Origin: Nakamurella antarctica
GTDB lineage: Bacteria; Actinomycetota; Actinomycetes; Mycobacteriales; Nakamurellaceae
Assembly (NCBI RefSeq): GCF_003860405.1
Contig: NZ_CP034170.1
Span: 186,001 to 250,000 of the forward strand
Length of the DNA: 64,000 bases
Direction: 5' to 3'
A model generated the notes under the pieces. The model was not told the origin of the DNA and made no database searches. It saw nothing but the letters and a program-made list of their open reading frames with translations. The translations under genes and the position numbers were made by a program. This document shows, one piece after another, positions 8,590-38,438 of the stretch (position 1 is its first letter; every line of letters starts with the position of its first letter).

Positions 8590-8691
8590 GTGTCCAAGGT
8601 GATCCGTCAGTGTGTGCGTTGCATGGGGACCACCTGCGGTGATGCTCAGAGTTGGGTAGCCGTCCACCGCACCGGCCCCAAACATACGACT

Positions 8692-8726
8692 GCCGCCCCC
8701 AGAAGATTCTGGGAGCGGCAGTGGTC
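8692..8726 (-). terminator. Terminator hairpin of the pknB operon
   Basis: CTGCCGC plus CCCAG pairs with CTGGGAGCGGCAG around a short AGATT loop, just after the pknB stop codon. It separates the kinase operon from the HtrA gene and argues that HtrA translation starts downstream, at 8589. Confidence 0.75.
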
Positions 8727-8737
8727 GCTGGTGGGGA

Positions 8738-10933: not shown

Positions 10934-11069
10934 TTGATTTCCTTATTTACTCTTCTAAGTAACACAACAGTCCATTCTTGCAGTTCCGGCCCACTTTGTG
11001 GGTCCCGTGGTGATCTGGGCGGTTGGCGGTTGTGGGGTTTCGCCAGACCTTGCGTTGCTCGCGACACCC

Positions 11070-17261: not shown

Positions 17262-17734
17262 GGCCGTAGCTCGAAGACGGTGCGGCCAATCCGAATCGGC
17301 GTCAAGGCGGGGATCGGTACCGGTGTACTCACCCTTGTTCGGTCTACGTAGGTGCCGTTCGTGGAGCCGAGATCTTCGAGCCAGTAACTCTGTCCTTGCA
17401 GTGTGAGGCGCGCATGTCTGGTGGAAGCAAAGTCGTCATCCAGCACCAAGGTTGAATCGTCGGCGCGACCAATCAAGATGGGGTTTTGGCTCAACGCGAT
17501 CCTGGTGCCGGCCAAATGACCAGCGGTGACGACGAGCTGTCGTGGTGGCCCAGAGGGAGCCGGAGCCGGCCGCGTGTTGCGCTGACGGCGCGCCCGCTTC
17601 GCAGAGGGCTCAGCGACGATGGACGCTGCTGCCACCCGCATGTCGGCACGGATGACGCGAATCACGGCCAGCACAAATAGCCAGAGCAGGATAAGAAATC
17701 CCACCCTGGTGAGTTGGAGTATTACTGCTGGCAC
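17258..17734 (-). CDS. fhaB: Membrane-anchored FHA-domain protein FhaB (FipA)
   Basis: This 158-residue phosphothreonine reader has an N-terminal membrane helix (VGFLILLWLFVLAVIRVIR, residues about 11-29), a basic linker (RARRQRN) and a C-terminal FHA domain (ILIGRADDSTLVLDDDFAS, then HARLTL and LEDLGSTNGTYVD). In mycobacteria this protein links phosphorylated FtsZ and FtsQ and is a PknA/B substrate. It ends four bases into pstP and begins nine bases after fhaA. Confidence 0.94.
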   Translation of the reverse strand: MPAVILQLTRVGFLILLWLFVLAVIRVIRADMRVAAASIVAEPSAKRARRQRNTRPAPAPSGPPRQLVVTAGHLAGTRIALSQNPILIGRADDSTLVLDDDFASTRHARLTLQGQSYWLEDLGSTNGTYVDRTRVSTPVPIPALTPIRIGRTVFELRP

Positions 17735-25436: not shown

Positions 25437-25462
25437 CACTGTGCGCGAGGGGGGAGTTGAAC
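25437..25462. other. Left attachment site (attL), tRNA 3' fragment
   Basis: Twenty-six bases (cactgtgcgcgagg... to ttgaac) identical to the acceptor and T-arm part of tRNA-Leu at 38351-38376. Beyond base 25462 the match is lost (tccgatg against cccccac), so this is a remnant and not a functional tRNA. Confidence 0.92.
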
Positions 25463-25654
25463 TCCGATGCACACACCAACACGCCGATACCTGAAGGTAC
25501 ATCAGACAGTCTCTGATCAGGGCGAACAGTGAACCAACCTAACAGCGACCAACAAGCAGATACATCCGAGACCGTCAACGGCGACACATAGCGTGACACA
25601 TGGAGCCAGCGGCACAAGGTGAATTTGGAACCCATCGCGTAAGAACAGTCCCGC

Positions 25655-25858
25655 CTAGTCGATCAGTCTCACGACCCATCCTTCTTCTGTTGTTGGTGCT
25701 GCGTCTTGGATGTGGTCGTTGGCGCAGAACATTGGCGGGAGTGGGTGGAAGCCTTTGGCTTGGTTTGGTGGTGGGTTGATAGTGATGTGTTGTCGGAGGA
25801 TTGCGTCGCAGTCTGCGTTTTGGCAATGGGCGTTGGTGTTCTCGGCTATCCAGGGCAT
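25655..25858 (-). CDS. Small Cys/His-containing protein of the element
   Basis: This 67-residue gene starts at ATG 25858 after AAAGGAAAC. The spaced pattern HCQNADCDAIL and later FCANDHI suggests a small zinc-binding knuckle. It is the last gene of the element on the left, 11 bases after the two-helix membrane protein gene. I do not recognise the family. Confidence 0.6.
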   Translation of the reverse strand: MPWIAENTNAHCQNADCDAILRQHITINPPPNQAKGFHPLPPMFCANDHIQDAAPTTEEGWVVRLID

Positions 25859-25869
25859 GGGTGTTTCCT

Positions 25870-26583
25870 TTAGGTGGTTGTTTCGTTTGGTTGCAGTGCT
25901 TCGACTGCCTCTACTAGCTTGCCGAGATGGTTGTTGTGGGTTTTCATTCGCCCTGGGATGGACTCTGAGCTTTCGACGGTGATTCTTGCGATGTGGGGTT
26001 CGACGTTGAGGGGCATTGTGTCGGAGTATTCGCGGCCAGAGTCGTCCTGGTATTTCAGGTGGATGGTCGTTTGTTTCGGGAGTTTGTGCCGGTTGACGTA
26101 GTCGTGTTCGTCGCCTTTAGGGACGCTTTGCCACCAAACGTTTTCGAGGTGTTGCCCTGGTCCGAATACTGCGATTGGGTCGGCGTACTGCCGCCGTATG
26201 TAGTAGCTGGCCAGGTGTGGCCTGCCGTTTTCGATGGGTAGCTCCGGCGTGAACGCGACTCGGAGGTTCCTTGCCATTGATGGGCCGGCGTTTCTGATGA
26301 CTAGTTCCAATGCATCACTGTTTGGCGCTGTTCGGAACTCGGCGAGGATCATGGGGCGACTACGGTCGCGGCTGTCTTTGGCAGTGCTTTGGAGGGCACC
26401 AGCGGCGATCACGGCGGTGACGACGGCAGCGATTGCAGCGAGGCCCGTCCCGTACTTGTTCGACCACTCCCAGACGTTGGTCATTCCTCCGGTAATAATG
26501 CCGACGAGGATTAGGACCGCTACCAGCCCGACGATGCTGAATCGGAGCCAGTGCTTTCGGATCGGGTTCGTTTCTGTAGCCAT
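25870..26583 (-). CDS. Two-helix membrane protein of unknown function
   Basis: The 237-residue product has two N-terminal membrane helices (RFSIVGLVAVLILVGIITGG and GLAAIAAVVTAVIAAGALQ) and a soluble beta-rich remainder containing VIRNAGPSMARNLRVAF, a pattern common in unnamed membrane-anchored proteins of actinobacteria. It is separated from the terminase genes by about 240 bases with a possible terminator, so it may be a cargo gene with its own promoter. Membrane-anchored single proteins at the edge of such elements sometimes block other phages, but there is no direct evidence for that here. Confidence 0.7.
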   Translation of the reverse strand: MATETNPIRKHWLRFSIVGLVAVLILVGIITGGMTNVWEWSNKYGTGLAAIAAVVTAVIAAGALQSTAKDSRDRSRPMILAEFRTAPNSDALELVIRNAGPSMARNLRVAFTPELPIENGRPHLASYYIRRQYADPIAVFGPGQHLENVWWQSVPKGDEHDYVNRHKLPKQTTIHLKYQDDSGREYSDTMPLNVEPHIARITVESSESIPGRMKTHNNHLGKLVEAVEALQPNETTT

Positions 26584-26776
26584 CGAGCGGTCCTTACCTC
26601 GTGCCCGGACCGCCTTTCGCGGAGGGCTGGGTGGTCAAGTTAGCGCGTTCTGGGGGGCATTGGATAGGAGCTCCGTTTTCTGTCATTCTGCTGCTCCTCT
26701 GAACGAGTGGACGAAGGCTGCGAAGTCAAGTATCCATAAGCACCTCTTAGGCCCTCCGTTCGGTGTGCGCACTAGG

Positions 26777-26817
26777 CTGTTTCCCGCTTCCCTACACATA
26801 GGTTGGGAAACGGGCAA
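26777..26817 (-). terminator. Possible terminator after the terminase nuclease gene
   Basis: GTTTCCC (26779-26785) pairs with GGGAAAC (26805-26811), seven bases beyond the stop side of the gene ending at 26824. There is no strong T run, so the call is tentative. Confidence 0.45.
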
Positions 26818-26823
26818 CAGTGC

Positions 26824-27468
26824 TTATTGCTCGTCGTGGTCGACCAGGCGTAGGTCGCTGATGTTCTGTAGGTAGAGCATTGCGAGCATGAGGGCGGTCG
26901 CTAGGTCGCCGTGGCCGTCTTTGTCGTCGGTGTCGTAGGTGGTGTTGCCGGATGCGCTGACTTTCTGCCGGAACGATGCGAGCTCACGTTCTAGTACGTC
27001 TCCGAGTAGTAGGCCGGTGGCGATCTTCAGCCGGCCCCGCTGCAGGGGTACAACCACCGCGTCCCCCATGTTGCGTTTGATCGTTGAGGTGATGGTGATC
27101 GCCCGGTAGGTGTTTTGGTTCATCTCCCCGGCCCTGTACTTCTCCCAGAACAGGTCTTTGACTGCCCGTCCGACACCTGTTGCGTCAAACCTGAATGAGG
27201 TGTTGGCGTGGTAGCGGTGCCTGGGGTGGCGCAGGATTTCGGCTGTTTCGTCCACGACCTGGGGGTAGGAGGTGCCGAGCGGCCATTTCTTCAGGTACCG
27301 GACGTGGTGTTGGGTGATGGAGCCGTGGGGGATGCGTTCGAGGTGCGGTGTTTCGGCGTAGTTGGCGCGGCTGTATCCCGGCGGGAGGGCGGTGAGGTGT
27401 TCGACCACGGCGAGTGCGCTGTAGTCCTGGGCTTGGCCGAGGTCGAGCCCGATTGTGTATGCGGCCAT
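26824..27468 (-). CDS. Terminase large subunit, nuclease part as a separate gene
   Basis: The 214-residue protein starts at ATG 27468, sharing one base with the stop codon of the ATPase gene (TAATG). It has the RNase H-like nuclease pattern of large terminases: a first acidic strand in TIGLDLGQAQDYSALAV, FRFDATGVGRAVKDLF in the middle and the C-terminal HGDLATALMLAMLY with an acidic residue. In most phages this domain is fused to the packaging ATPase; here the two are separate polypeptides that presumably assemble. Upstream in-frame sequence is antisense-like and not part of the gene. Confidence 0.8.
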   Translation of the reverse strand: MAAYTIGLDLGQAQDYSALAVVEHLTALPPGYSRANYAETPHLERIPHGSITQHHVRYLKKWPLGTSYPQVVDETAEILRHPRHRYHANTSFRFDATGVGRAVKDLFWEKYRAGEMNQNTYRAITITSTIKRNMGDAVVVPLQRGRLKIATGLLLGDVLERELASFRQKVSASGNTTYDTDDKDGHGDLATALMLAMLYLQNISDLRLVDHDEQ

Positions 27469-28217
27469 TAGTACTCCAAGGGTGTGACGTTGTGGGTGAA
27501 TGCGGCCCGGATCAGTTCGGTGTTGAACATTTGGGAGTCGGTGTCTCCGAACTGGCATTCGTAGTCGGATGCGAACACATACGCGCCGAGGGCAGCTTTG
27601 ATTTGGGCGATCCTGTTGGCGCTGTATTGCGCGGATTCGTAGGCGGTGACCTTGTGTCGTTCCCAGCCGTTGCCGAGGTCGGTGTCGAGCTTGTGGAACC
27701 ATCCCCGGCGTCCCCACGGCGTTGATAGGGCGATGATCTGCCCGTCCGAGGCGACCATGGGTAGGACGCTGGCGAATATGTCGTCGTCCACCCGTGACGC
27801 TTCGTCCAGGATCAGCAGTCGTGCCCCGGCGAAACCTCTGGATGTGCCTTCGGTGCCTGGTAGGGACACGATGCGGGAGCCGTTCTCCAACTCGAGGGTG
27901 GACTCGGAGTCGGCTTTGGCTTTCACTGGCCTGCCGCACGCGTTGTAGACCGCTCTGCAGCGGCGCAACATCTCATTGGACTGTCGTTGCCCTGGGGAGA
28001 ACAGCAGGACCAACGAGTTGGGCCTGTAGAGGGCTGTGTGAACGCTTTTGATTGCGGTGGTGGTGGTTTTACCGACTTGCCTGGCGCAGTTGACCACGAC
28101 CCTGCTGGCGATGGTCCGCAACAGTCGCTCTTGCCATGGTTCAGCCACAAACTCGACCCGGCGCCCGAAGGCAACCGGGTCGAGTGCGGCAGCTGCGTCG
28201 GCTGCGAATGCGTTCAC
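27468..28217 (-). CDS. Terminase large subunit, ATPase part
   Basis: This 249-residue DNA-packaging motor ATPase has the entry FVAEPWQERLLRTI (adenine-binding region), Walker A-like NCARQVGKTTTTA, strand SLVLLFSPGQRQSNEML, Walker B LLILDEASRVDDD and coupling motif LSTPWGRRGWF. It ends at NVTPLEY where the nuclease domain would normally continue; the next gene begins in the stop codon. It starts four bases inside the small-subunit-like gene (ATGA overlap). All motor motifs look intact. Confidence 0.88.
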   Translation of the reverse strand: MNAFAADAAAALDPVAFGRRVEFVAEPWQERLLRTIASRVVVNCARQVGKTTTTAIKSVHTALYRPNSLVLLFSPGQRQSNEMLRRCRAVYNACGRPVKAKADSESTLELENGSRIVSLPGTEGTSRGFAGARLLILDEASRVDDDIFASVLPMVASDGQIIALSTPWGRRGWFHKLDTDLGNGWERHKVTAYESAQYSANRIAQIKAALGAYVFASDYECQFGDTDSQMFNTELIRAAFTHNVTPLEY

Positions 28218-28693
28218 GCTTCTATCGCCTGCAACCGGTTGGCGACAGCGAGCGCGGCGTCGGGGAACAAGCTCAGGGCCTCAAAGATCGCGCCACGAGC
28301 CTGTATCCAGTCGGGCAAGGTTGCCAGGTTGATGACGACCTTCGTTGATTCGTCCAATTCCCCGGTGAGCTTGGCCAGCAGTTCGATCATGGAGCGCAGT
28401 TCCTTCGCTGCGCTGACGCTGAGAGCGCCGTTGCCTTTGGCGCGGGCATCTTCGAGGGTGTACTTGATTTCCTTGTAGATGTCCTCGAGCCGGTCGATTG
28501 CTCGCCTGGGTCCGGCTTCCTCGTTAATGACCCTTGCGAGGGCCTTGCTGATGTGCGAGCGGTGCCGGCGAACTGCGTCTTTGAGCAGCCCGTATTTCGC
28601 CCCGATAGCGGCGTAGGTTCCCCCTCCCATCACGATGTCGGCGTCGAGTTCGGCGCGTCTTGGGTGGGTGCATCCACCACAGGGCGGCGGCAT
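28214..28693 (-). CDS. Small-terminase-like DNA-binding protein
   Basis: This 159-residue protein lies directly before the terminase ATPase, the usual place for the small subunit that recognises packaging sites. It begins with a Cys/His cluster (PCGGCTHPRRAELD), then a helix-turn-helix-like segment (YAAIGAKYGLLKDAVRRHRSH), followed by long helices. The start codon overlaps the upstream stop (TGATG). The assignment rests on position and the HTH; no family-specific motif was recognised. Confidence 0.6.
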   Translation of the reverse strand: MPPPCGGCTHPRRAELDADIVMGGGTYAAIGAKYGLLKDAVRRHRSHISKALARVINEEAGPRRAIDRLEDIYKEIKYTLEDARAKGNGALSVSAAKELRSMIELLAKLTGELDESTKVVINLATLPDWIQARGAIFEALSLFPDAALAVANRLQAIEA

Positions 28694-29361
28694 CAGTCGG
28701 TGGACAGCGCGTCGTTGATCGCCCGGTAACCCGCCGGGTCCTCGGCGTGGATCGCGGCGAGGTGTTCGTATGCCTTGGGGCCGCTTGTGTTGCCTTCGGA
28801 TATCAAGGTTACGAGGCCGTCCCAGGCCGCTGCGGACTTGTTTGCGGCGTCCGCCTGGCGTACCGCGACGTAAGCACCCGGCTCGGGCTCTAGGTCAGCG
28901 AGGCGATCAATCACGGCCTCGCCTATCCAGCTTGTTTCGGGTTCGGTGAATCCGCGTCCATCGGTGGGCGGTGCCTGACGTGACTGTTCGTAGGTGGGTC
29001 CCCAGTCGGCAATGGCTTTGAGAATTTCGGGGTCATTGGTGCTGGCGATCACAGACTGCAAGTCCCGTCCGCTTTCGAGCAGCATCATTGCTTTCTTCCA
29101 AGCCTGCTCCTGCCGAATCAGCAGGTTCTCGGGGGCTTTCATGGATGACTGCGCTTTGGTTTTCGCTGCGGCGTACTGCTGTGCTGCTGCCGCGGCTCGC
29201 GGGTTCATTACGCCGGAGGCAACCCGGTGGGCTGAGGCCATACCCTCGGCGCGGAGTTCGTTGATGCGCTGGACGCTCAGGTTCGGGTCGGTGAACTTCT
29301 TCGCGGCTTTCATTGCTGCGATGAAGGCGAGGGTGGTTTCGAGGTTCTTGTTGTCGGTCAT
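28693..29361 (-). CDS. Helical protein of unknown function between tape measure and terminase genes
   Basis: This 222-residue gene starts at ATG 29361 with AGGAGAC upstream (MTDNKNLETTLAFIAAMKAA). An uninterrupted frame makes it look like the C-terminus of the tape-measure gene, but that is an artefact of the frameshift at 29579-29583. It is alanine-rich and mostly helical, with a Gln/Lys-rich middle (AAAAQQYAAAKTKAQ). The position could fit a scaffold, a tail chaperone or an unrelated regulator; no family was recognised. Confidence 0.75.
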   Translation of the reverse strand: MTDNKNLETTLAFIAAMKAAKKFTDPNLSVQRINELRAEGMASAHRVASGVMNPRAAAAAQQYAAAKTKAQSSMKAPENLLIRQEQAWKKAMMLLESGRDLQSVIASTNDPEILKAIADWGPTYEQSRQAPPTDGRGFTEPETSWIGEAVIDRLADLEPEPGAYVAVRQADAANKSAAAWDGLVTLISEGNTSGPKAYEHLAAIHAEDPAGYRAINDALSTD

Positions 29362-29422
29362 TCTGTCTCCTAGATGAGGGTTGTACTGGTACTTCTGAGG
29401 GTGTGATCGGGGTGGGTAGGGG

Positions 29423-32340
29423 TCAGTAGCGGCTCCCCACGATTGCGCGGCTCGATTCGGCGTTGGATTCGCGGATTTGCACCTTGGCGTGACCGCGCAC
29501 GAACTCAGCGAGGTCGCCGTGCCCTTCGATGGTGAGAACCACTTCCTGGCGGCTCGAGGTATTGCCGCCACCTGGCATCCCCCGCCCGCGTAGCCGGCGA
29601 GAACTTCGCGAGGAACACGGCGCTGCTGGATGGCGGTCATGGCCTGGACGCCGTAGTAATCCACGGACGGTTCGGGTTGGATGAACTCCCCGGAACGGAC
29701 CTTGATCGGTTTGCCGTTGACCATTCCGAGCAGGTTGTCCATCGTTGGGTCCACGGGTGAAACACCCGGCAGGAGACCGCCCTGGGCGTATCCCATCAAC
29801 GCTGCTACCGACCCGCCTGTGTATCCGCCGATGCTGTTCACTGCGTCGTGGACAGCTTTCCCGACGCTGTTGTTGAGAAGGATCGTCCCTGAGATGGTGA
29901 AGTACTTGTTCGCCACCGCCTTGTTATTCACTGAGTCAATATCGGCCTTCGACTTTTCGATGCCGTTAGCGATTACCGTCAGCTCCTTGTCGGTAAGTTT
30001 CACTCCCTCAACGATGCCGAGCTTGTCAGCCAAGGCACCGGCAGCAGCCACGCCACCGTCCATGCCTTTGTTGTTCTCAATGAACATGGCCCGAGCATTG
30101 TCAGCGGCTGATCTGGCACCTGCGAACGCCGTCCCGAGGTCCCCGTTCTTCAACCCCAAAGCCAGCGCGGAAGCTGTGGATGCATCGGCGGCTTCCCGCT
30201 GCTTATCGAGGGAGTCTTTCCACTTCGACCCAGCCTCGGTGACGGTGTTGATCGACCCATCGGCGTTGATCAGCGACTCAATGTGACCCTCGGTGGCCTT
30301 CGTGGCGTCGTCGAATGCCTTCTTGCCGTCGCGCATCGCGTCGTTCAAGTCCTGCTCAACTTGCTCGGCTGACTTGTTGATGCCGAGCATCCGATCGATG
30401 GAGTCGGTGAGCCCTTTTGCGGACAGGTCGAAGTCGGCTGCGGCTTGTGCACCGTCCTTGAATCCCTGTTCCATCTCCGTCAGCGGCGGGTTCGCTGCCC
30501 GCAACAACCCGGCGAGATCAGCGATGCCACCCTTGGCATCGAGGATTGCCTCGCCCATGAACGCCCCGGACTTGCCCAGGCCAGCGGCTGCCTCATCGGC
30601 TTTGCGGAATGCGGCGCTGCTGTAATCCACGTCCTTGGCCAGCAATGCACCAATTCCTGAACCCTGCACTGTCCCAACGACTTTCTCCACAATGCCGAGG
30701 GCTTCGGCCATGCTCCGCATCGTGCTTCCCATGGACTCACCGACCCACTTGAGCCCATCCCCAACAAAGCTGATGGCTTCAATGAAGGGGGTTAGGGCAC
30801 CGACCGCGAACCCCAACGCCGGGGTCATGTCGTTTAGGAACCCGATTGTTGACTCCGCGAATGGCAGCAGTTTCTCCCCGATAGCAATTGCTGTTAGCTC
30901 CAACTGATGCGTGAGCGCGGAGAGCCCAGAGTTTGCGGTGTCGTTAGCCTGGTCGGTGGCCTTCTGTGCCTGACCGTTGAACACACCCAAACCGGTACTC
31001 GCTGAGTCGAGGGACTTGAGGAATCCCGGAATCTTGCTGATGCCCAGGTCCTCCAGTGGCGTACCGAACAGCGCAATGGCGGTGTTGGCCTGGATCGTTG
31101 GGTCCTTGATCTTGACCAGGCCGCCGATGATCTTGTCGAACGCGCTGCGTGCGGTTTCCCCACCGGCCAGAATGTCACCTGCCATGGTTTTGGCTGACAG
31201 CCCGATGGTGCCGTAGGCGGCAACGCTCGTTGACGACATATCCGTTGATCGGATCGTGAACTCCTTGATGGAGTCCCCGGCCTTGTCCATGGCGATCGCG
31301 CCGTCAGCGGAGGCGTCAGCGATCAAACCCAAAGCCTGGGTGCCGCTGATCCCTAACGACTCGAAATAGGTGGAGTACTCCCCAACTACGTCGAGCAGGT
31401 CGCCCCGCATGTCCGTGGTCGTTTTCTGTGCAGCCTTGGTGAGCATGTCGAATGCTTCCTGTGCATCCTTTGCCAGGCCCGTTTTGATCAGCCGGCCAAC
31501 GGTTGCCGTGACCCTCTCTGATTCCTCGCCCGTCACCGTGACAAGGGTGGTGACGAATGTGGCGAACTTCTGCAACTCCGCGTCCGAGGCATCACCTAGC
31601 CCTGAGATGTTGGTGATGACACCGGCCAGGATGCCATTTAGTTCACTGATGGACTCACCGAAACCCTGCCCGTAAAGGTCACCGGCGATCTTCCCCACCC
31701 GGGCGGACTCATCGGCAGTCAGATCAAGTTGGGCCTGTAGCTTGGCTTGCCCTTCCTGAAAGTCCATTGCGGCCACGAGGGACGCGACCAGGGCTGCGCC
31801 GATAGCAGCGCCTGCGACCGTGGCCTTCCCGGCACCGGAGGAACCGAACTCTTTGATCTTGCCCAGCATCCCGCCCGTTGCGCCGTCCAGGCTGTCGCCC
31901 AAACCTCCGAGTCCGGATTCCAGGCCTGCACTGATTTCGCCACCAGATGACCTGGCTTCACTGCCACCTTCGGAGCCGATGCGGCTGATGTCGGAGCGAA
32001 CCCCACCGGCGACACCATCAACAACCGAGGACAGGCCGGACAGCCCCGACTCCAAGCCCGCGCTAATCTCCCGGCCCGCTGACGTGGCCGCTGAGCCACC
32101 TTGGGAACCAACCTGGTTGATGTCACCTACGACCCCGCCCGCGCTGTTCGGGATAGCGGCGGAGAGACCGGATAGGCCAGCTTCAAGCCCGGAAGTCATG
32201 CTCCGCCCGGCCTGGGTAGCTGCGCTCTCACCTTCCGTGCCGAGGGCTTTGATAGCGGCGATGCCTTGAGCGGCCCCTGATTCTGTTGCTGACGCATCAA
32301 CTTTCAGATATGCGACAAGCGTGCCTAGATCAAGACTCAT
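29423..32340 (-). pseudogene. Phage tail tape-measure protein, frame broken near its C-terminus
   Basis: With the frame restored this is a tape-measure protein of about 972 residues, which sets tail length and is threaded through the tail tube; at 0.15 nm per helical residue it implies a tail near 145 nm. The N-terminus (MSLDLGTLVAYLKVDA) and the core (FQEGQAKLQAQLDLTADESA, FTIRSTDMSSTSVAAYG, GLSALTHQLELTAIAIG) are typical. At the G run corresponding to 29579-29583 the frame slips: an added G restores AGGGMPGGGNTSSRQEVVLT and a stop at 29423. Without it translation runs into the next gene and gives a 1215-residue fusion. A sequencing error, a mutation or recoding are all possible. Confidence 0.85.
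31870..32210. repeat. Three imperfect repeats in the tape-measure N-terminus
   Basis: A unit of about 35-40 residues of the type AGREISAGLESGLSGLSSVV...GSEGGS occurs three times in succession, visible also as repeated DNA. Repeat number directly alters length in tape-measure proteins. Confidence 0.7.
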
Positions 32341-32578
32341 TTGGTGCTCCTAGGGTTTTTTGCTGCGCAAGGTTGCGCAGCGTTTCGATTAGTTCTGACT
32401 CGTACTGCTGGGACTGGGTGCGCCACTCAGTCACTTCGGCTTCGCAAGCCCGAAACTTGGTGCGCCACCTGGCGCTCTCAGCCCGCAACTCACGGATTTC
32501 CTCCCAGATGCAGGCGGCGTCGTCCCTCGAGACAGCGCCCACCCGAGTCATGGCGTCCCAGAGGCGGTCAGTGATCAC
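32330..32578 (-). CDS. Small coiled-coil protein
   Basis: This 82-residue protein has a GTG start at 32578 that overlaps the stop of the RepA-like gene (GTGA); it ends 11 bases inside the tape-measure gene. The sequence from CIWEEIRELRAESARW to YESELIETLRNLAQQ is a continuous heptad-like helix rich in Glu, Arg and Leu. It may oligomerise; a role as accessory to its neighbours is a guess. Confidence 0.7.
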   Translation of the reverse strand: MITDRLWDAMTRVGAVSRDDAACIWEEIRELRAESARWRTKFRACEAEVTEWRTQSQQYESELIETLRNLAQQKTLGAPNES

Positions 32579-33942
32579 GCCGCACCTTGGCCGATGATGC
32601 AGATGACGCACCTTCCGCCTGATGTGCGAATCGCGGCTTGGCACTCGGAACAAGTGCGAGTGCCCAAGGGAGCAGCCAAGGGAGCGAAGGGTGCAGTGTG
32701 CGTGTGCGTGCTCGCTTCGCTCCCTTCCTGCTCCCTTGGAGGTTCGGTGTTCGTTAGTCGCCAGTGCCAGGGACCGTTGAATTCAGGCTTGTAGGCTTCG
32801 ATCCCCAGCCGAGCCTTTGCACGTTTGGTCTGATCCTTGGAGTACCCGGCGGCATCGGCGGCGCTGTAGACCTCGGTCGCTCGGTAGTTCGCTTCGGTGA
32901 GTAACGAAGTAAGCCAGCTGTCGATGGAGCGCTGCCCGCTCGAGTCCTCGCCCGGCCTGCCTTCGGCGTTGGCTCGCATGATGTCCCGAACCGAACGCTC
33001 CGAGGTGCTGCCGGTGAACTCGTACCGTGACACCCAAGCTGTGCCGTCGTCGGTTTCCACCGGCGTCGGGATGATCTTGTATTGCAGCGACGGCAGGTTG
33101 TCCCGTCCCAAGTTGTTCTTGGTGGTGCTCATCACGAACGTCGGCTCGGATGTTTCGTCCGCGTCCTCGGCTGCTTCCTCTCGGGCGAACCCGATCCCGG
33201 CCCTAATGAGTTGCCCGAAGGCAGCAGCACCTTGGATCGCCAACAACGGGTCGCCTGATGGTGCCGACTTGTTGAAGTGGGCCAGGCCCACGACAGCGCA
33301 CTTGGTCCGGTCGGCCATTTCCACCAATGGGTCCAGGGCAGCCCGAACTTCCTTGCCCCGGTAGTCGTTGATTTCAGCGCCCAGGGCAGACAACAACGGG
33401 TCGCAGACCAGCAGGCCGACGTTGTTCTTCTCAATCAACCGGCCGAGCGCTTTGGTGTCGGTCGGCAAAGTCAGCTGCGCGTGCTCGTTGTTGTCTGTCA
33501 CAACGTCCACGAAGTAGACCCTGGACATATCAGCGCCAGCAGCGAGCAGGCGCGGCCCGATGGTCATCTCCCTCGAGTCCTCATTGGCGGCGATGATCAC
33601 CGACTTCGGCTTGCCATAGTGGGTTCCGGGCAGGGTCCCGGTGGTCAGGCGTGCCACCAACCACAGGGTGAACTGGGACTTGCCGATCCCGGCTTGCCCG
33701 GCGGCGATAGTGAGAGAGCCGACCGGGATTCTTCCCTCGGAGTCCTGCGGGGCAGCACCTTTGGGGGCCGTGTCCCATAACCAAGTTGGCTTACGCATCC
33801 GAATCTTCGAAGCCGCTGTGAGCGTCAATTCCCGCACAGGCTTCGGTGTCGCCTTCGCCCCGAGCGTCACGATTTCGGGCATGTCCAGATCGGCAGGTTC
33901 GGCTTCGATGGTGTCCGGCCAGAACACTGTTGGCGCGTTCAC
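32575..33942 (-). CDS. RepA-like hexameric AAA/RecA-fold ATPase with C-terminal zinc ribbon
   Basis: The 455-residue protein resembles the AAA_25/RepA helicase group of plasmids and phages. Walker A is AGQAGIGKSQFTLW near residue 90, the following strand is VIIAANEDSREM, and Walker B lies in NVGLLVCDPLLSALGAEIND, followed by the conserved VGLAHFNKSAPS. The C-terminal third carries a winged-helix-like YKSADAAGYSKDQ-type segment and a zinc ribbon, CSECQAAIRTSGGRCVIC. It probably loads on the element's origin or drives its replication after excision. The start is coupled to the previous gene by a four-base overlap (33939-33942). Confidence 0.82.
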   Translation of the reverse strand: MNAPTVFWPDTIEAEPADLDMPEIVTLGAKATPKPVRELTLTAASKIRMRKPTWLWDTAPKGAAPQDSEGRIPVGSLTIAAGQAGIGKSQFTLWLVARLTTGTLPGTHYGKPKSVIIAANEDSREMTIGPRLLAAGADMSRVYFVDVVTDNNEHAQLTLPTDTKALGRLIEKNNVGLLVCDPLLSALGAEINDYRGKEVRAALDPLVEMADRTKCAVVGLAHFNKSAPSGDPLLAIQGAAAFGQLIRAGIGFAREEAAEDADETSEPTFVMSTTKNNLGRDNLPSLQYKIIPTPVETDDGTAWVSRYEFTGSTSERSVRDIMRANAEGRPGEDSSGQRSIDSWLTSLLTEANYRATEVYSAADAAGYSKDQTKRAKARLGIEAYKPEFNGPWHWRLTNTEPPREQEGSEASTHTHTAPFAPLAAPLGTRTCSECQAAIRTSGGRCVICIIGQGAA

Positions 33943-34628
33943 TGTGCATCCGTTCCGGTGACTGTGTCGAGGCCAGCGTTGACACGGCTCAGACCCTCGT
34001 GGACAGCCTCAAGCTCCGTCAGGACCGCAAGACCTAGCTCGGCCAAACTCCCTGTGAGAGCGGCCTTGTGGACCCGATCGACCGCTGCCAAGCAATCACG
34101 GCGAACAGCGTGCTCGGCAACACAAACCGCCAAGTACTCGCCACTAATTGCGGGCGGTGCGGACAGGGAAAGACTTGCGACGAACGATGACAAGTCCATG
34201 TGTGGGCTGGCGCCAGGACGAATCAAGGCTCGGCTCACTGCAAACTCGGGGATGGTGACCATGGAGACCGGGATGCCCTCGGAGTCCATCTTGCGCATCA
34301 AGTTCTCAACGAACCGACACTTGGCCTCGACAACATCGGAAACACCATAAAGCGATCGCATCTTCTCGCGGCCCTGTTTCGTGGCGTTGATCTGTGCGGC
34401 AACCAAACCCATCTCAGCCGATGTCGAATCGACTAGCTCGGGGCGGGTTCGTACTCGGGTACTGCTCGTAACTGAGGGGCAGCCTGTGCCATGGTGAGGC
34501 TCAATTCTGCGCATACGTGCGCGAAGACTGGGTTGGCCACAAAGGTGTGGCGTTGGCCTGCCTTGGGACACCCGGTCCCTTGCCAGTACTAGGTCCACGT
34601 CCAGCAGACCCTTGAAACGGCAACACAT
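33939..34628 (-). CDS. Unknown protein of the element, possible compensated frameshift in the N-terminal third
   Basis: From ATG 34628 (MCCRFKGLLDVD) the frame stays open for 229 residues to 33939, two bases after the upstream small gene. The C-terminal two thirds (from ELVDSTSAEMGLVAAQ) are well formed and helical. Between about 34575 and 34440, however, the annotated frame is Arg/Ser-rich, whereas another frame reads GCPKAGQRHTFVANPVFAHV and AQAAPQLRAVPEYEPAP, which looks far more protein-like. One G too many near 34575 and one C too few at 34440-34443 would produce exactly this. The family is not recognised. Confidence 0.6.
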   Translation of the reverse strand: MCCRFKGLLDVDLVLARDRVSQGRPTPHLCGQPSLRARMRRIEPHHGTGCPSVTSSTRVRTRPELVDSTSAEMGLVAAQINATKQGREKMRSLYGVSDVVEAKCRFVENLMRKMDSEGIPVSMVTIPEFAVSRALIRPGASPHMDLSSFVASLSLSAPPAISGEYLAVCVAEHAVRRDCLAAVDRVHKAALTGSLAELGLAVLTELEAVHEGLSRVNAGLDTVTGTDAQ

Positions 34629-34629
34629 G

Positions 34630-34785
34630 TCAGGCTTTTTCGTCGGTGCGCCAATGGTCAAGCTTGACCATTGTGGCGACAGCCTCGTCATAGCCGAACT
34701 GGCGGCCACTTTCCCAAAGCTCGTTGGCTTGGGCCTTGGTGAGAGTGACTGTCCGTGCCTTCTTTTTGGCGACTTTCTTGCTCAT
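34630..34785 (-). CDS. Small basic protein, 51 residues
   Basis: This short gene overlaps the preceding stop codon (ATGA at 34782-34785) and ends just before the next start. It begins MSKKVAKKKARTVTLTKAQA and ends KLDHWRTDEKA. The lysine-rich N-terminus may bind nucleic acid. It is not recognised, but the tight coupling and normal composition support a real gene. Confidence 0.65.
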   Translation of the reverse strand: MSKKVAKKKARTVTLTKAQANELWESGRQFGYDEAVATMVKLDHWRTDEKA

Positions 34786-35453
34786 GCGCGCTTCGCTCCC
34801 GTCAGAAGGTCAGCGGCACCCGTAGAGGTGGACGCGATGATGGAGCCGAGCACGATGAGACCACCGAACTGGACGGCGGTCTCAGCGGACAGCGCCGACA
34901 ACTGAGCGCCGTCGAACTCGATGCGGGCCTGTCCGGTGAACAGGCCATGGGCACGGTAGCGGGTAACCCTGATCGACACTGTTTCGCCTGAGATGGTTTG
35001 CACCGAATCGAGTTCCTGCTCGCAGTACTCATTAGGTCCAGCGGGATGACCTGACTTGCACCACTTCTCACACCGGGCGATCTTCGGCCCGAACCAGAAC
35101 CGGCCCTCGATGGCGTCCAGGCCCTGCCCAGGCAGCCCATCCTGAGCCTGTTCCAAGGACGCCACAACATCGGCAACGCTGGCGGCACCGGCGATACGAA
35201 CAACACGCCGATCGCCAGCATCAACCTCAACAGTGACAGGGAAACCCGGTGCCACCACAGGCACGTCAGCTTCGACGTACACGCGACAGTCGCGCTCCAA
35301 CACCCAGGCACATAACACCGTGAGCGGGACGACATCTGCGACCAGGTCAGCCCCGGCGTTGAACAGTGCGTTGGCCTGACCAATCTTGTCCATGCCGTCG
35401 AAGAACCCAGGGAACTCGAGGGCATCAGCGAAAGTCGTTGCGGCGGCGCTCAC
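34782..35453 (-). CDS. Unknown protein with a Cys-rich segment
   Basis: This 223-residue protein begins at GTG 35453 (overlapping the upstream stop, GTGA). The first half is acidic and beta-rich; residues about 127-145 contain CEKWCKSGHPAGPNEYCEQE, a possible metal-binding loop; the end is hydrophobic (FGGLIVLGSIIASTSTGAA). The segment ISGETVSIRVTRYRA may be part of a beta barrel. Family and function are not recognised. It is conserved in operon position only. Confidence 0.65.
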   Translation of the reverse strand: MSAAATTFADALEFPGFFDGMDKIGQANALFNAGADLVADVVPLTVLCAWVLERDCRVYVEADVPVVAPGFPVTVEVDAGDRRVVRIAGAASVADVVASLEQAQDGLPGQGLDAIEGRFWFGPKIARCEKWCKSGHPAGPNEYCEQELDSVQTISGETVSIRVTRYRAHGLFTGQARIEFDGAQLSALSAETAVQFGGLIVLGSIIASTSTGAADLLTGAKRA

Positions 35454-35617
35454 AGGACAACCTCTTTCAAAGCGGCCAACAACTCACGCGCTTCGGAATC
35501 ATTCAGGAACACAGTCCCCGAAATGCCGAACGTGATCTGCACTGGCTGCGCGAAAGAATCCACACGCTCAGCAACAATCGGAGCCAGGATCAGCGACCGG
35601 GACTCGATGCGGGCCAT
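35450..35617 (-). CDS. Small protein, 55 residues
   Basis: Translation starts at ATG 35617, overlapping the stop of the 44-residue gene upstream (TGATG). It begins MARIESRSLILAPIVAERV and ends NDSEARELLAALKEVVL, a beta strand region followed by a helix. Similar short proteins are common in actinobacterial integrative elements, but I cannot assign a role. Confidence 0.6.
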   Translation of the reverse strand: MARIESRSLILAPIVAERVDSFAQPVQITFGISGTVFLNDSEARELLAALKEVVL

Positions 35618-35751
35618 CAGCGGGACACCCGAACGCGAGCGACAGCCGGCAACGGACTGCGGGGAAGACTCCCAGTAGAACGCACGATGAACTGGGTGAA
35701 CGCATTCACCGGGACCGCCGGTGTGGGTGGGACGTTGTAACCTTGATTCAT
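35617..35751 (-). CDS. Small protein, 44 residues
   Basis: An excellent ribosome binding site (GAAGGAG, seven bases before ATG 35751) supports this short gene, which begins MNQGYNVPPTPAVPVNAF and ends in a basic segment. Function unknown; it is the second gene of the minus-strand operon. Confidence 0.6.
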   Translation of the reverse strand: MNQGYNVPPTPAVPVNAFTQFIVRSTGSLPRSPLPAVARVRVSR

Positions 35752-35840
35752 TACTGAACTCCTTCTTGCGGAATGGGTGCGGTGATTGGCCACCGGGAGC
35801 GACAACTCCTTGGTGGCCGTTTTGTTTTCGGTCTGCACGA

Positions 35841-36062
35841 TCAGGCCGCCGGACTGGCAACGCCGTCGAGAATCCGAATGAACTGCTCGCGGGGAATCAG
35901 TACGCGCCTCCCGATGCGGATCGCCGGAAAGGTGCCTTCCTCGATCGCCCGATCCAAAGTCCGAACGTCTACGTCCAGCACCTCCGCGCCTTCGGTACGT
36001 GTGAGAGCAGCTGTGGTCATCTTCCGAACGTCGGCAAGTGTGAGCTTTTTCGACTTGGACAT
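35841..36062 (-). CDS. Excisionase/AlpA-like winged-helix DNA-binding protein
   Basis: The 73-residue product starts at ATG 36062 with GGAGGTGG in front. The segment MTTAALTRTEGAEVLDVDVRTLDRAIEEG is a MerR-like helix-turn-helix, followed by the small wing FPAIRIGRRVLIPREQF typical of the excisionase/AlpA group (DNA-binding domain, excisionase family). It is the first gene of the minus-strand operon and is divergent from the repressor and integrase, the usual place for a recombination directionality factor. Confidence 0.85.
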   Translation of the reverse strand: MSKSKKLTLADVRKMTTAALTRTEGAEVLDVDVRTLDRAIEEGTFPAIRIGRRVLIPREQFIRILDGVASPAA

Positions 36063-36084
36063 CTCCACCTCCTTTTCAATACGC

Positions 36085-36099
36085 GACACAATTTGTGTC
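36085..36099. promoter_or_regulatory. Palindromic operator between excisionase-like and repressor genes
   Basis: GACACAA-T-TTGTGTC is a perfect palindrome in the divergent control region. A related, weaker pair of half-sites (TGTGT at 36150-36154 and ACACA at 36162-36166) straddles the repressor start codon. They are the likely binding sites for the XRE protein. Confidence 0.65.
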
Positions 36100-36158
36100 T
36101 TACTCAGTAGACCACTCGATGTATCCAAATGTCAAGATGTCCACTAGAGTGTGTTTCT

Positions 36159-36938
36159 ATGACACAGGTAGACGGGACTGACGTAGAGCCAACTTGGGGA
36201 ATTGACTGGAGTCGAATGGTCGGTGAGCAGATAAAGATCTGGCGTGGTCGGCGGGGACTGTCTGCTCAGCAGCTTGCTGATCGAACTCGGACTCTCGGCT
36301 ACACCGTTAGCCGAAACACCATCGCTTCACTGGAAAGTGGGAGGAAAGAGACCGTGCCGATTCAGGAGCTCGTGACCATCGCACGCACGCTGGAAGTTGC
36401 GCCGCTGGCTCTGTTGTTTCCGGTGGGGACCATCGACACAGTCGGTGTGCCAGGTCCAGACCGAATCTCAACCTGGGAGGCGGCTCTCTGGTTCTCCGGT
36501 GAAGTTCGCAAACTTACAAGCGCCGACGACCCCATGCATCAAGACTGGGGACGAGGGGAATACAGCCTGGGCTATGAGGAATGGGATGCCGGAGAAACAC
36601 ACGGAATCTGGGAGTACTACATCGAACCGCGAAACGACGCTGGCGCACTGTCAGACCTCCGCCTCGCGGAAGCCGAACTGACGAAGTGGCGAGCCCTGAT
36701 GCCGCTGGTCAAGCACGCTTTCCTGGTCTTTACTACGGCCAAAACTGACTCCGTGATCGATACCTGGCAGTCCGTGTTCCAGTACGTCGGTCAACAGGCA
36801 GACAAGCATTGGCAAGTTATGGAGGCGCACCGAGCGAAAGCCAGGACGTACCCAGTCCCCGCCGACCTACACAACATGGAATCCGAGGAAGCCGACCACG
36901 CCAAACTGTTGCGACTCCTAGCCGGCGAATCCTCATGA
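36159..36938 (+). CDS. XRE-family transcriptional regulator (element repressor)
   Basis: I start at ATG 36159 (MTQVDGTDVEPTWG), giving 259 residues; there is no Shine-Dalgarno, so the mRNA may be leaderless, as is common in actinobacteria. The helix-turn-helix spans about residues 22-72 (LSAQQLADRTRTLGYTVSRNTIASLESG). The rest is an unassigned domain (TWEAALWFSGEVRKLTS to NMESEEADHAKLLRLL). It faces away from the excisionase-like operon across a palindrome and is coupled to the integrase by an ATGA overlap, so repressor and integrase are produced together. Confidence 0.85.
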   Translation: MTQVDGTDVEPTWGIDWSRMVGEQIKIWRGRRGLSAQQLADRTRTLGYTVSRNTIASLESGRKETVPIQELVTIARTLEVAPLALLFPVGTIDTVGVPGPDRISTWEAALWFSGEVRKLTSADDPMHQDWGRGEYSLGYEEWDAGETHGIWEYYIEPRNDAGALSDLRLAEAELTKWRALMPLVKHAFLVFTTAKTDSVIDTWQSVFQYVGQQADKHWQVMEAHRAKARTYPVPADLHNMESEEADHAKLLRLLAGESS

Positions 36939-38209
36939 CTACCCGCAAACGGCAAGCAGGGGACGGCAGCATCAACGCCTACACAACCCAAGCCGGCACC
37001 CGCTACCGCTTCGAAACCCGACTACCCGTAGACCCCGACAACCCCGATGCAGGCACCAAGCGCATCGTGCGCGGAGGGTTCACCACCCGCACCGAGGCAG
37101 CCACCGAAGGCCGACGCATCCTCACCGGCACATCAACCACGACAGCCAGGAAGAAAGGGGCGGCGACCTTCGGGGACTTCATCACCAAATGGCTCGCAGG
37201 CCTAGACCTGGCCGAAATAACCATGGCCGGATACCGCAAGCTCGCACGCCTACACATCACCCCCGCCCTCGGTGCGCTCACCATCCCTAAGGTGACACCG
37301 ACGACCCTTGCCAAGCACTACCGGGAACTCGAGGCACACGGCAGGAAGGACGCCACCCGCACCGGTCAGGCACTCTCAGCCAACACCGTCCTCAAGGTCC
37401 ACGTCCTCATCGGGCAGATGCTCGAGGCAGCAGTCAGCGACAACCTAGTCACCCGTAACGCAGCCAGGCACAAGGACGCCAGGCCGCCGTCACCCAAGAC
37501 AGTCAGGGCGCAGAAGCCAGAGATACACCCATGGGAATCGGAGCAGGTGAAAGCGTTCCTCGCATGGTCCAAGCAGGCAGGGGATGGGAGATATTGGGCG
37601 TGGGCCGTAGCGGTCCGTACCGGCGCTAGGCGTGGGGAAGTACTGGGACTTCAATGGCGCGACCTAGACCAAACAGCCAGCACCATCAGCATCAGGCGAT
37701 CCGTTGTCCTGGTGAAGGACCACCAACAGGGTGAGCACCTGGCCGTGAAGCCACCGAAGTCGGGTAAGTCCAGGGTCATCGCCTTGGACGCGGCGACCAT
37801 GAAGCTACTGCAGGAATGGAAACTACAACGGGCATCACTGTCCCTCGAACTTGCAACACCCGGCGCATACGTGTTCGGTGATCTGTCCAATAAGCCGCAG
37901 CACCCTGAACGCTTCTCACGGCAGTTTCAGCGGTCAGTGGAGCAATGCCGCCGGGCGCAGATGCAGGCAGCGCAGAAGGCAGCAGGGGAGGGAAGGCCGG
38001 CTGATCTGACAGGGCTGGTCCCCACGGTCAGGCTCCACGACCTACGGCACACGCACGCCACGTTGCTACTGCAGCAGGGGGTCAGCCCGAAGGTGATTCA
38101 GGAACGACTCGGACACGCCAACATCAGCATTACCCTCGACATTTACAGTCACGTCCTGCCGACCATGCAGGCATCAGCGGCCGACCTCCTGGCCGCCGTC
38201 CTCGCCTAA
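36935..38209 (+). CDS. Tyrosine recombinase integrase
   Basis: The enzyme integrates and excises the element at the tRNA-Leu site. ATG 36935 overlaps the repressor stop codon; the protein has 424 residues. An arm-binding N-terminus (QAGDGSINAYTTQAGTRYRFE) is followed by a core-binding domain (ATFGDFITKWLAGLDLAEIT) and the catalytic domain with Arg in VRTGARRGEVLGLQW, HDLRHTHATLLLQQG (His and Arg), GHANISITLDIYSHV with the nucleophile Tyr near residue 405. All catalytic residues are present. It ends about 140 bases from the attachment site. Confidence 0.95.
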   Translation: MTTRKRQAGDGSINAYTTQAGTRYRFETRLPVDPDNPDAGTKRIVRGGFTTRTEAATEGRRILTGTSTTTARKKGAATFGDFITKWLAGLDLAEITMAGYRKLARLHITPALGALTIPKVTPTTLAKHYRELEAHGRKDATRTGQALSANTVLKVHVLIGQMLEAAVSDNLVTRNAARHKDARPPSPKTVRAQKPEIHPWESEQVKAFLAWSKQAGDGRYWAWAVAVRTGARRGEVLGLQWRDLDQTASTISIRRSVVLVKDHQQGEHLAVKPPKSGKSRVIALDAATMKLLQEWKLQRASLSLELATPGAYVFGDLSNKPQHPERFSRQFQRSVEQCRRAQMQAAQKAAGEGRPADLTGLVPTVRLHDLRHTHATLLLQQGVSPKVIQERLGHANISITLDIYSHVLPTMQASAADLLAAVLA

Positions 38210-38304
38210 CCGATGCGCGTTCCAGCCACTTCGGACACATGCAAGGACGCGGATCTTGACCCGAATAAACGCGCTTGACACATAACTTGACACATGGAAA
38301 CGAC

Positions 38305-38347
38305 GAAAGCCCCCGATCTGCGACGTAACCGCAGGTCAGGGGCTTTC
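38305..38347. terminator. Element-supplied terminator for tRNA-Leu (and integrase)
   Basis: GAAAGCCCC plus ATCTGCG pairs with CGCAGGT plus GGGGCTTTC. It lies four bases inside the right attachment site and can end transcription of the integrase on the plus strand and of tRNA-Leu on the minus strand, replacing the original terminator now at 25357-25403. Confidence 0.75.
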
Positions 38348-38350
38348 TTG

Positions 38351-38376
38351 CACTGTGCGCGAGGGGGGAGTTGAAC
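38351..38376. other. Right attachment site (attR), in tRNA-Leu
   Basis: The second copy of the 26-bp direct repeat, inside the functional tRNA gene next to the integrase. The crossover must lie within these 26 bases. Confidence 0.92.
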
Positions 38377-38438
38377 CCCCACGTCCTTTCGAACACACGG
38401 ACCTGAACCGTGCGCGTCTGCCATTTCGCCACTCGCGC
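38356..38438 (-). tRNA. tRNA-Leu (anticodon CAG)
   Basis: The minus strand folds as a class II tRNA: acceptor GCGCGAG/CTCGCGC, D-arm GGCGAAATGGCAGACGC, anticodon stem with loop TTCAGGT (CAG), a long variable arm and the T-arm GGGGGTTCAACTCCCCC. The 3' part of the gene is the right attachment site; integration preserved the complete sequence. CCA is not encoded. Confidence 0.95.

What the first reader, a model, noticed from the sequence alone, without database searches (positions are those of the whole stretch)
25437..38376. 12.9-kb tRNA-integrated element with packaging and tail-length genes but no particle genes
The sequence shows a clean integration (26-bp repeats, intact tyrosine integrase, excisionase-like gene, XRE repressor) and a compact operon with many overlapping start/stop codons. 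It contains a complete terminase motor, a small-terminase-like gene, a full-size tape-measure gene and a RepA-like ATPase. Every other structural and lysis gene is absent. Random prophage decay rarely leaves a tightly coupled operon of mostly open genes, so a phage satellite that supplies its own packaging specificity and its own tail-length ruler to particles made by a helper phage is a credible, unusual explanation. Known satellites typically redirect capsid size or packaging; carrying a tape measure without capsid genes would be new to me.
Basis: partly seen in the sequence, partly recalled or inferred. Interest (0 to 1): 0.78.

Follow-up and report, generated by a model that had tools for sequence, protein, structure and literature searches.

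The report
Phage satellite with own tail ruler
A small DNA island in an actinobacterium most likely travels inside particles built mainly by another virus, bringing its own DNA-packaging motor and tail-length ruler; similar islands bring a ruler, a shell protein or a tail fibre, which suggests a swap-one-part strategy.

Summary
Window 25437-38376 is a 12.9-kb island in tRNA-Leu with 26-bp ends, integrase, repressor, excisionase, AAA replication protein, small-terminase-like gene, a two-gene large terminase and a tape measure protein (TMP). No capsid, portal, tail-tube or lysis gene was detected. Caveat: the last 51 TMP codons are out of frame.

The two-gene terminase is natural, not broken. 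I found nine such islands in eight genomes of the order, with a TMP but no capsid or portal detected; eight of nine carry a large terminase and seven of nine TMP frames are open. The TMPs derive from several phage lineages, and their place in the operon differs. Sister islands with related terminases (61-64% identity) carry a capsid protein instead. The window's own genome holds a second island, with a capsid protein, at a site where another genome has a TMP island.

Most likely this is a satellite that packages itself and builds chimeric tails on helper parts. The principle is known from Vibrio PLE satellites (PMC12987554, 2026). New are the actinobacterial lineages, the motor-plus-ruler combination without capsid genes, and the apparent swapping of single structural parts. 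Helper, excision and transfer are untested.

The parts
25437..25462 (.). attL-type 26-bp repeat
   Evidence: identical to 38351-38376
38351..38376 (.). 26-bp repeat at the 3' end of tRNA-Leu
38355..38438 (-). tRNA-Leu(cag), integration target
   Evidence: ARAGORN
36929..38209 (+). tyrosine integrase (exact start codon not fixed)
   Evidence: Pfam Phage_integrase 1.9e-23
36129..36938 (+). XRE-type repressor, divergent from the operon
   Evidence: PHROG transcriptional repressor 3.1e-07 (scanned from 36147); 46% to the G110a regulator over 121 aa
35841..36128 (-). AlpA/excisionase-like HTH_17 protein, first gene of the leftward operon
35450..35773 (-). small gene of unknown function (start uncertain)
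   Evidence: no PHROG hit
34782..35453 (-). gene of unknown function, 223 aa
   Evidence: no PHROG or Pfam hit
34630..34785 (-). small gene of unknown function
   Evidence: no PHROG hit
33939..34436 (-). gene of unknown function (start uncertain)
   Evidence: one weak PHROG hit, 0.026
32575..33942 (-). RepA-like AAA_25 replication protein
   Evidence: Pfam 1.5e-24; phrog_10729 2e-49
32330..32653 (-). small coiled-coil-like protein between replication gene and TMP; real start probably downstream
   Evidence: no confident PHROG hit; similar small genes in G009, L016, L019 seen by eye
29581..32340 (-). tail tape measure protein, main reading frame (920 codons)
   Evidence: phrog_1272, phrog_28 about 1e-25; PhageMin_Tail
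29423..29578 (-). displaced last 51 codons of the tape measure gene, in another frame
   Evidence: codon-position GC; no PHROG hit alone
28693..29361 (-). all-helical protein shared by several islands, function unknown
   Evidence: homologues in G110 (two), G014, G120, L018; model pLDDT 88.3, no fold match
28214..28693 (-). small terminase-like protein (HTH plus helices)
   Evidence: 8-member family directly before TerL; PHROG none; fold search inconclusive
27468..28217 (-). large terminase ATPase subunit (own gene)
   Evidence: phrog_7579 8.3e-56; Terminase_6N 5.6e-13
26824..27468 (-). large terminase nuclease subunit (own gene, TAATG overlap)
   Evidence: phrog_27743 1e-24, phrog_5909 2.4e-07
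25870..26583 (-). protein with a hydrophobic N-terminus (by eye), candidate cargo; similar protein in the G014 island
   Evidence: phrog_9607 2.4e-09, unknown function; G014 similarity seen by eye
25655..25858 (-). small gene of unknown function
   Evidence: no hit

Best explanation
The island is a phage satellite. Shown by sequence: it is integrated in tRNA-Leu and has integrase and repressor on one strand, with an excisionase-led replication and morphogenesis operon on the other. It encodes its own terminase (TerS-like plus two-gene TerL) and a tape measure protein, and no other head, tail-tube or lysis gene was detected. Inferred: a helper siphophage induces it; it excises and replicates with its own AAA protein; its terminase packages its DNA through the helper's portal into helper-made heads; its TMP replaces the helper's, so the particle carries a chimeric tail. 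The island thereby controls two specificity points (which DNA enters the head and which ruler sits in the tail) and leaves the bulk parts to the helper. Related islands make the same kind of bargain with a different part (capsid protein, once with a recognised scaffold; or a tail fibre). In this particular copy the TMP end is displaced by a frame change, so its ruler may be impaired.
For: Nine TMP islands without a capsid or portal detected: window, G009, G110 (two), G012, G120, G053, G116, G287. 45 further ORFs of five of them (G009, G110a, G110b, G012, G120), chosen from a greedy ORF call, gave no portal, capsid, tail-tube or lysis family in PHROGs at 1e-3, apart from one head-tail-connector-like hit in G110b. 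Five of nine are bounded by exact repeats (window 26 bp; G009 at least 22 bp; G110a 44; G110b 44; G053 48). Seven of nine TMP frames are open, 784-1299 codons as called (some starts uncertain). TMPs were captured more than once: the island label needs 4 changes on a 60-row tree, at least 3 forced by well-supported branches; the G009 TMP is sister to the TMP of a presumed prophage of another genome of the genus (100/100; 52% identity over 303 aa), while the G009 terminase groups with the window's (100/100). TMP lies before TerS in the window and after TerL in G009 and G110a. G009 and G120 also carry a tail assembly chaperone (phrog_3860, 1.1e-08 and 4.9e-19), a partner that PLEs also carry. Precedent: PLE TMP is incorporated into satellite virions and needed for efficient transduction (PMC12987554).
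Against: No induction, excision, particle or transfer data exist for any of these islands. The helper is unknown, and no co-resident prophage was seen (no second TMP relative; no PF04860 portal; other portal families not searched). The TMP frame is interrupted in the window and in G009. No tail assembly chaperone was recognised in the window island. TerS is assigned by position and conservation only. Several islands with related terminases carry no recognised TMP (G006, L020, G081; L016 and L019 have a capsid protein). The shuffle test of the TMP tree label is not informative (49 of 500 as low).
Confidence: 0.74

Rival explanations
1. Deletion remnant of an ordinary prophage: terminase and tape measure happen to survive between deletions.
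For: TMP frame interrupted here and in G009; TMP relatives lie in what read like ordinary phage tail operons (L184, L186, L189).
Against: Comparable gene sets with different order and TMPs of several lineages in nine islands; exact att repeats in five; closest terminases belong to other islands, not to viral contigs.
Confidence: 0.12
2. The satellite is real, but the TMP acts mainly as a weapon: it titrates helper tail assembly and reduces helper yield, rather than being built into satellite tails.
For: An interrupted TMP in 2 of 9 islands might still interfere; PLE11 attacks helper tail assembly with another protein (PMC12987554).
Against: Seven of nine TMPs are open over their length and two islands have a recognised chaperone; in PLEs the satellite TMP is found in satellite virions.
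Confidence: 0.12
3. The island is a domesticated packaging cassette of the host and no longer moves.
For: No helper recognised in the genome; TMP frame change.
Against: Several integration sites (tRNA-Leu cag in the window, tRNA-Leu gag in G009, tRNA-Thr cgt in G110a and G053, tRNA-Met in G110b), sporadic presence (two-gene terminase at over 390 bits in 4 of 397 genomes), open integrase and excisionase genes.
Confidence: 0.02

Closest known systems
PLE satellites of Vibrio cholerae (PMC12987554)
   Same: TMP on the satellite (and a chaperone in two islands here), no capsid set, helper supplies the rest of head and tail.
   Different: No PLE sequence was compared; siphovirus-type TMPs related to actinophage ones; the window island also carries a terminase motor. 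The PLE mechanism is experimental, this one inferred.
Capsid-forming PICIs (cf-PICIs), as described in passages of PMC10690885; the original paper is not held
   Same: Own TerS and TerL; some cf-PICIs carry predicted tmp genes (PMC12987554, legend of Extended Data Fig. 10).
   Different: cf-PICIs encode capsid, protease, portal and connectors; the window island shows none. The sister islands L016 and L019 have a capsid protein but no portal seen.
Classical PICIs (SaPI type)
   Same: Integrase plus repressor divergent from excisionase, replication gene and TerS; no full structural set (general layout recalled).
   Different: Own TerL and TMP; actinobacterial; induction untested.
Streptomyces satellites MulchRoom and MiniFlayer (PMC10690885, passages)
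   Same: Actinobacterial satellites with packaging genes.
   Different: They carry portal, capsid, scaffold and adapter; 'tape measure' has no occurrence in that paper.

Membership tests
Phage-inducible chromosomal island (PICI), broad sense | Site-specific integration with integrase and att repeats | tested here: met
Phage-inducible chromosomal island (PICI), broad sense | Repressor divergent from an excisionase/AlpA and replication module | tested here: met
   gene order
Phage-inducible chromosomal island (PICI), broad sense | No complete set of structural and lysis genes | tested here: met
Phage-inducible chromosomal island (PICI), broad sense | Induction and mobilisation by a helper phage | not testable with these tools
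   no experiment
Capsid-forming PICI | Own TerS and TerL | tested here: met
   (TerS by position and conservation only)
Capsid-forming PICI | Own capsid, portal, protease and connectors | tested here: not met
   no such hit among window genes
PLE-type tail-modifying satellite | Own tape measure protein | tested here: met
   with the last 51 codons out of frame
PLE-type tail-modifying satellite | Own tail assembly chaperone | tested here: inconclusive
   none recognised in the window; present in G009 and G120
PLE-type tail-modifying satellite | Satellite TMP in satellite virions; chimeric tails | not testable with these tools
   needs particles
PLE family by descent | Sequence homology to PLE genes | not tested
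   no PLE sequence was compared

The most novel reading that the evidence does not exclude
Actinobacteria host a modular class of satellites that usually own the specificity of packaging and, in addition, swap one particle-defining part of the helper for their own: the tail ruler, the capsid protein, or a tail fibre. Ruler and capsid variants both occur in a tRNA/tyrosine-integrase lineage and in a serine-integrase lineage at the tad pilus locus. In the window's genome a ruler satellite and a capsid satellite live together, so one helper infection could yield particles with two satellite-supplied size determinants.
Probability: 0.33. Interest if true: 0.8.

Novelty: new variant of a known kind. 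Interest (0 to 1): 0.66.

Why it matters
PMC12987554 (2026) calls PLEs the first satellites known to alter tail assembly and says that the benefit remains to be deciphered. Nine islands with rulers of several origins in one bacterial order suggest that replacing the ruler is a more general, repeatedly selected satellite strategy. Islands that share a terminase clade but differ in TMP versus capsid protein give a natural comparison for asking what a ruler swap buys: tail length, helper interference, escape from exclusion, or fit to a host.

Tried and rejected
Rejected: broken TerL (natural two-gene family). Rejected: TMP copied from a co-resident prophage (no second relative in the genome). Considered: programmed frameshift for the TMP frame change; by eye no canonical slippery site, so mutation or assembly error is preferred; not decidable here. 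Led nowhere: fold search of the shared helical protein (no match at E 0.001 in PDB or BFVD); fold search of the TerS-like model (pTM 0.38; small terminase 6ejq only at E 3.4); empty-site search with the flanking GGDEF gene (many paralogues, 17 of 17 genomes); literature on two-gene terminases (0 papers with all five terms). A first att pattern was a wrong guess (0 matches). Not followed: G002 (RepA-like gene plus IS-interrupted TMP, undetermined), G319:C56 (surroundings not fetched), G319:C33 and L018 (contig ends). L015 (second G012 TMP, presumed prophage) was not read gene by gene. Of the loci L021-L138 most were used only for the terminase tree.
Full report
What is there. The window lies in a one-contig 3.38-Mb genome. 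The tool calls G009 'same genus'; its contig C16 (295,108 bases) agrees in length and hit place with a contig of Nakamurella leprariae YIM 132084 (L017), so the host is a Nakamurella by that kinship. The island spans 25437-38376, between two identical 26-bp repeats, one inside the 3' end of a tRNA-Leu. Integrase and an XRE regulator read rightward; the other assigned genes read leftward as one overlapping operon starting with an excisionase-like gene.

Packaging genes. The large terminase is made of two genes, ATPase and nuclease, that overlap as TAATG. PHROGs has separate families of matching length (phrog_7579, 239 positions; phrog_27743, 233 positions), and a two-gene arrangement is seen in G009, G006, G110a, L016, L019, L018, L020 and L008. 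It is therefore natural. The gene before it is a small HTH-plus-helix protein conserved in eight loci upstream of TerL; I call it TerS-like because of its place, since neither PHROGs nor a fold search confirmed it.

Tape measure. The ORF 28693-32340 hits tape measure families up to residue 912. Codon-position GC shows that the TMP frame stops looking like a gene near 29580 and that a 51-codon ORF in another frame takes over; the original frame then runs into a separate gene, 28693-29361. Without the displacement TMP would end at 29423, about 972 codons. The last 51 codons are displaced in this copy or this assembly.

Relatives by terminase. A search of 101 relatives gave 6 of 101 genomes with a match. 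A search of 397 genomes of the order with a 7-row alignment gave 88 of 397 at E 0.001; four matches (G000, G009, G006, G110) exceed 390 bits, seven more (G053, two in G319, a second in G110, G116, G081, G287) lie at 107-127 bits, and the rest score 43 bits or less. Of these 11 places I read the surroundings of 10. Seven carry a TMP (G000, G009, both in G110, G053, G116, G287), two do not (G006, G081) and one ends at a contig end (G319:C33). A class-level sample gave 1 of 394 at 1e-40, the window itself. A pattern scan of the species-genome collection gave 44 confirmed loci, among them Arthrobacter castelli (L016, 61%) and Brevibacterium antiquum (L019, 64%). Two more TMP islands came from other searches: G012 from a TMP search (6 of 101 genomes; of its other matches G001 and G085 read like ordinary prophages, one G012 match is a presumed prophage, G002 is undetermined) and G120 from a search with the helical gene (4 of 397 genomes).

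TMP islands. (a) N. leprariae G009: tRNA-Leu(gag), att motif at 11941 and 25142 of the joined stretch, 13.2 kb, TerS-TerL-TMP-chaperone; its TMP is interrupted by a frame change. (b) G110a: tRNA-Thr(cgt), 44-bp repeats, 15.1 kb, TerS-TerL-WhiB-helical gene-small gene-TMP, open frame. (c) G110b, same genome: tRNA-Met, 44-bp repeats, 15.2 kb, one-piece TerL, helical gene, TMP open. (d) G053: tRNA-Thr(cgt), 48-bp repeats, 16.9 kb, one-piece TerL, TMP-like protein of 1299 aa (phrog_7025, only 4.4e-05). (e) G012: serine integrase, AAA protein (by eye), TMP of 1229 aa, one-piece TerL (5.2e-53), between tad/Flp-like genes. (f) G116 and (g) G287: serine integrase next to tad/Flp-like genes, TerL, TMP (5.7e-52 and 4.9e-90). 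(h) G120: serine integrase, helical gene, chaperone, TMP, no terminase seen. With the window this makes nine TMP islands in eight genomes; eight of nine have a TerL. Direct repeats were searched and not found for G012 and G120 and not searched for G116 and G287, so the ends of these four are not fixed.

Islands with another part. L016 (37-bp repeats, 9.55 kb) and L019 (57-bp repeats, 9.05 kb) carry TerS, two-gene TerL and a capsid protein (phrog_10, 5.8e-33 and 1.4e-37); a scaffold hit was obtained for L016 (5.9e-05) and not sought for L019. G081 carries a tail fibre protein (1e-31) after TerL. G006 (44-bp repeats, 12.4 kb) and Thermoleophilia L020 (45-bp repeats, 12.0 kb) carry terminase but no TMP or capsid recognised by reading. 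G014 (23-bp repeats, 8.0 kb) carries the helical gene but no terminase recognised.

The second island of the window's genome. PF05065 gave one match in the own genome, at 2.21 Mb; PF04860 gave none. That place is another island (L247): serine integrase, a gene read as primase, WhiB, a scaffold-like gene by position, capsid protein (1.8e-32) and TerS (1.6e-20); no portal or TMP seen. Its integrase is 62% identical to that of the G012 TMP island, and both lie between homologous tad genes (50-68%). G116, G287 and G319 integrases form a second set (65-70% among themselves, 38-42% to the first; G120 27-29%).

More than one capture. On a 60-row TMP tree the island label (window, G110a, G009, G012, and the undetermined G002) needs four changes, at least three forced by supported branches; the shuffle test is not informative for a label that is not clustered (49 of 500 as low). 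The TerL ATPase tree used 117 of 130 rows; 13 with short or missing matches were dropped, among them the one-piece TerLs of G110b, G053 and G081, and its bootstrap had not settled. It puts window, G110a, G009, L016 and L019 in one clade at 100/100 without any viral contig; G006, L018 and L020 fall elsewhere. So one terminase clade carries TMP in three members and capsid protein in two, and its TMPs do not follow it. By blastp the nine TMPs fall into two sets without a hit between them at 1e-5 (window, G110a, G012, G116, G009; and G110b, G120, G053, G287).

The shared helical protein. Gene 28693-29361 has relatives in 4 of 397 genomes searched, the window's included (G000, G014, G110 twice, G120), plus L018. 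The model is confident (pLDDT 88.3) but matches nothing. It occurs with and without TMP (G014), so it is more likely a general satellite factor than a tail part. That is inference.

How it most likely works. After helper entry the repressor is relieved, the island excises and replicates, its terminase selects its own DNA, and its TMP is used with helper tube, tip and head proteins. Why a ruler? Three uses fit: a tail of another length, withdrawal of tail capacity from the helper, and escape from exclusion systems that recognise the helper's TMP during DNA entry. None is tested. In PLEs the satellite tails are about 10 nm shorter, and removing tmp lowers transduction by roughly 96% (PLE1), 99% (PLE4) and 99.9% (PLE11) (PMC12987554).

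Prior knowledge. [quoted passage not shown] 10; figure not seen). PMC10690885 (passages) describes Streptomyces satellites with capsid genes. PMC10023795 (passages) says that small actinobacterial elements under 15 kb could be satellites and that validation lags. PMC12908700 (passages) is a meeting report without relevance here. Searches combining satellite, tape measure, capsid-forming and actinobacterial terms listed no report of this arrangement (titles and abstracts seen); the library holds open-licence PMC papers only.

Limits. Everything beyond gene content is inferred. Genes were called by open frame, codon-position GC and profile hits. 'No capsid or portal' means no PHROG hit among the genes scanned and nothing recognised by reading; the 45-ORF scan covered five islands, and not every gene of G053, G116, G287, G006, G081 and L020 was scanned.

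Noticed in passing
L247 (G000:C1:2202000-2221900), 5619-13496: Second satellite-like island in the window's own genome: serine integrase, WhiB, capsid protein, TerS; no portal or TMP seen.
   Followed up: partly
G012 (L180/L181), G000 (L247), G116 (L257), G287 (L258): The tad/Flp pilus locus is a repeated insertion site for serine-integrase islands with either TMP or capsid protein.
   Followed up: partly
L170/L171 and L242/L243 (one genome, G110): Two TMP islands with TMPs of unconnected sets and different terminase types live in one genome.
   Followed up: partly
L014 (G081) 9790-11385: An island with terminase carries a tail fibre protein as its only other recognised structural gene.
   Followed up: partly
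window 28693-29361; L170, L242, L244, L245, L018: Confidently modelled all-helical protein family of these islands with no fold match; function open.
   Followed up: partly
window 25870-26583 and L244:12830-13441: Similar proteins (by eye) at the end of two otherwise different islands; candidate cargo.
   Followed up: no
L021-L057 and L060-L135: Relatives of the ATPase-only terminase gene occur in viral contigs and in genomes of Planctomycetota, Acidobacteriota, Pseudomonadota and methanogenic archaea.
   Followed up: no
L179 (G002) 5692-17465: RepA-like gene and a TMP cut by an insertion sequence; possibly a decayed TMP island.
   Followed up: no
L170:15296-15580, L243:1003-1311, L257:16973-17500, L247:9724-10146: WhiB-like regulators recur in these islands (L170 and L247 by PHROGs, the others by eye).
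   Followed up: no
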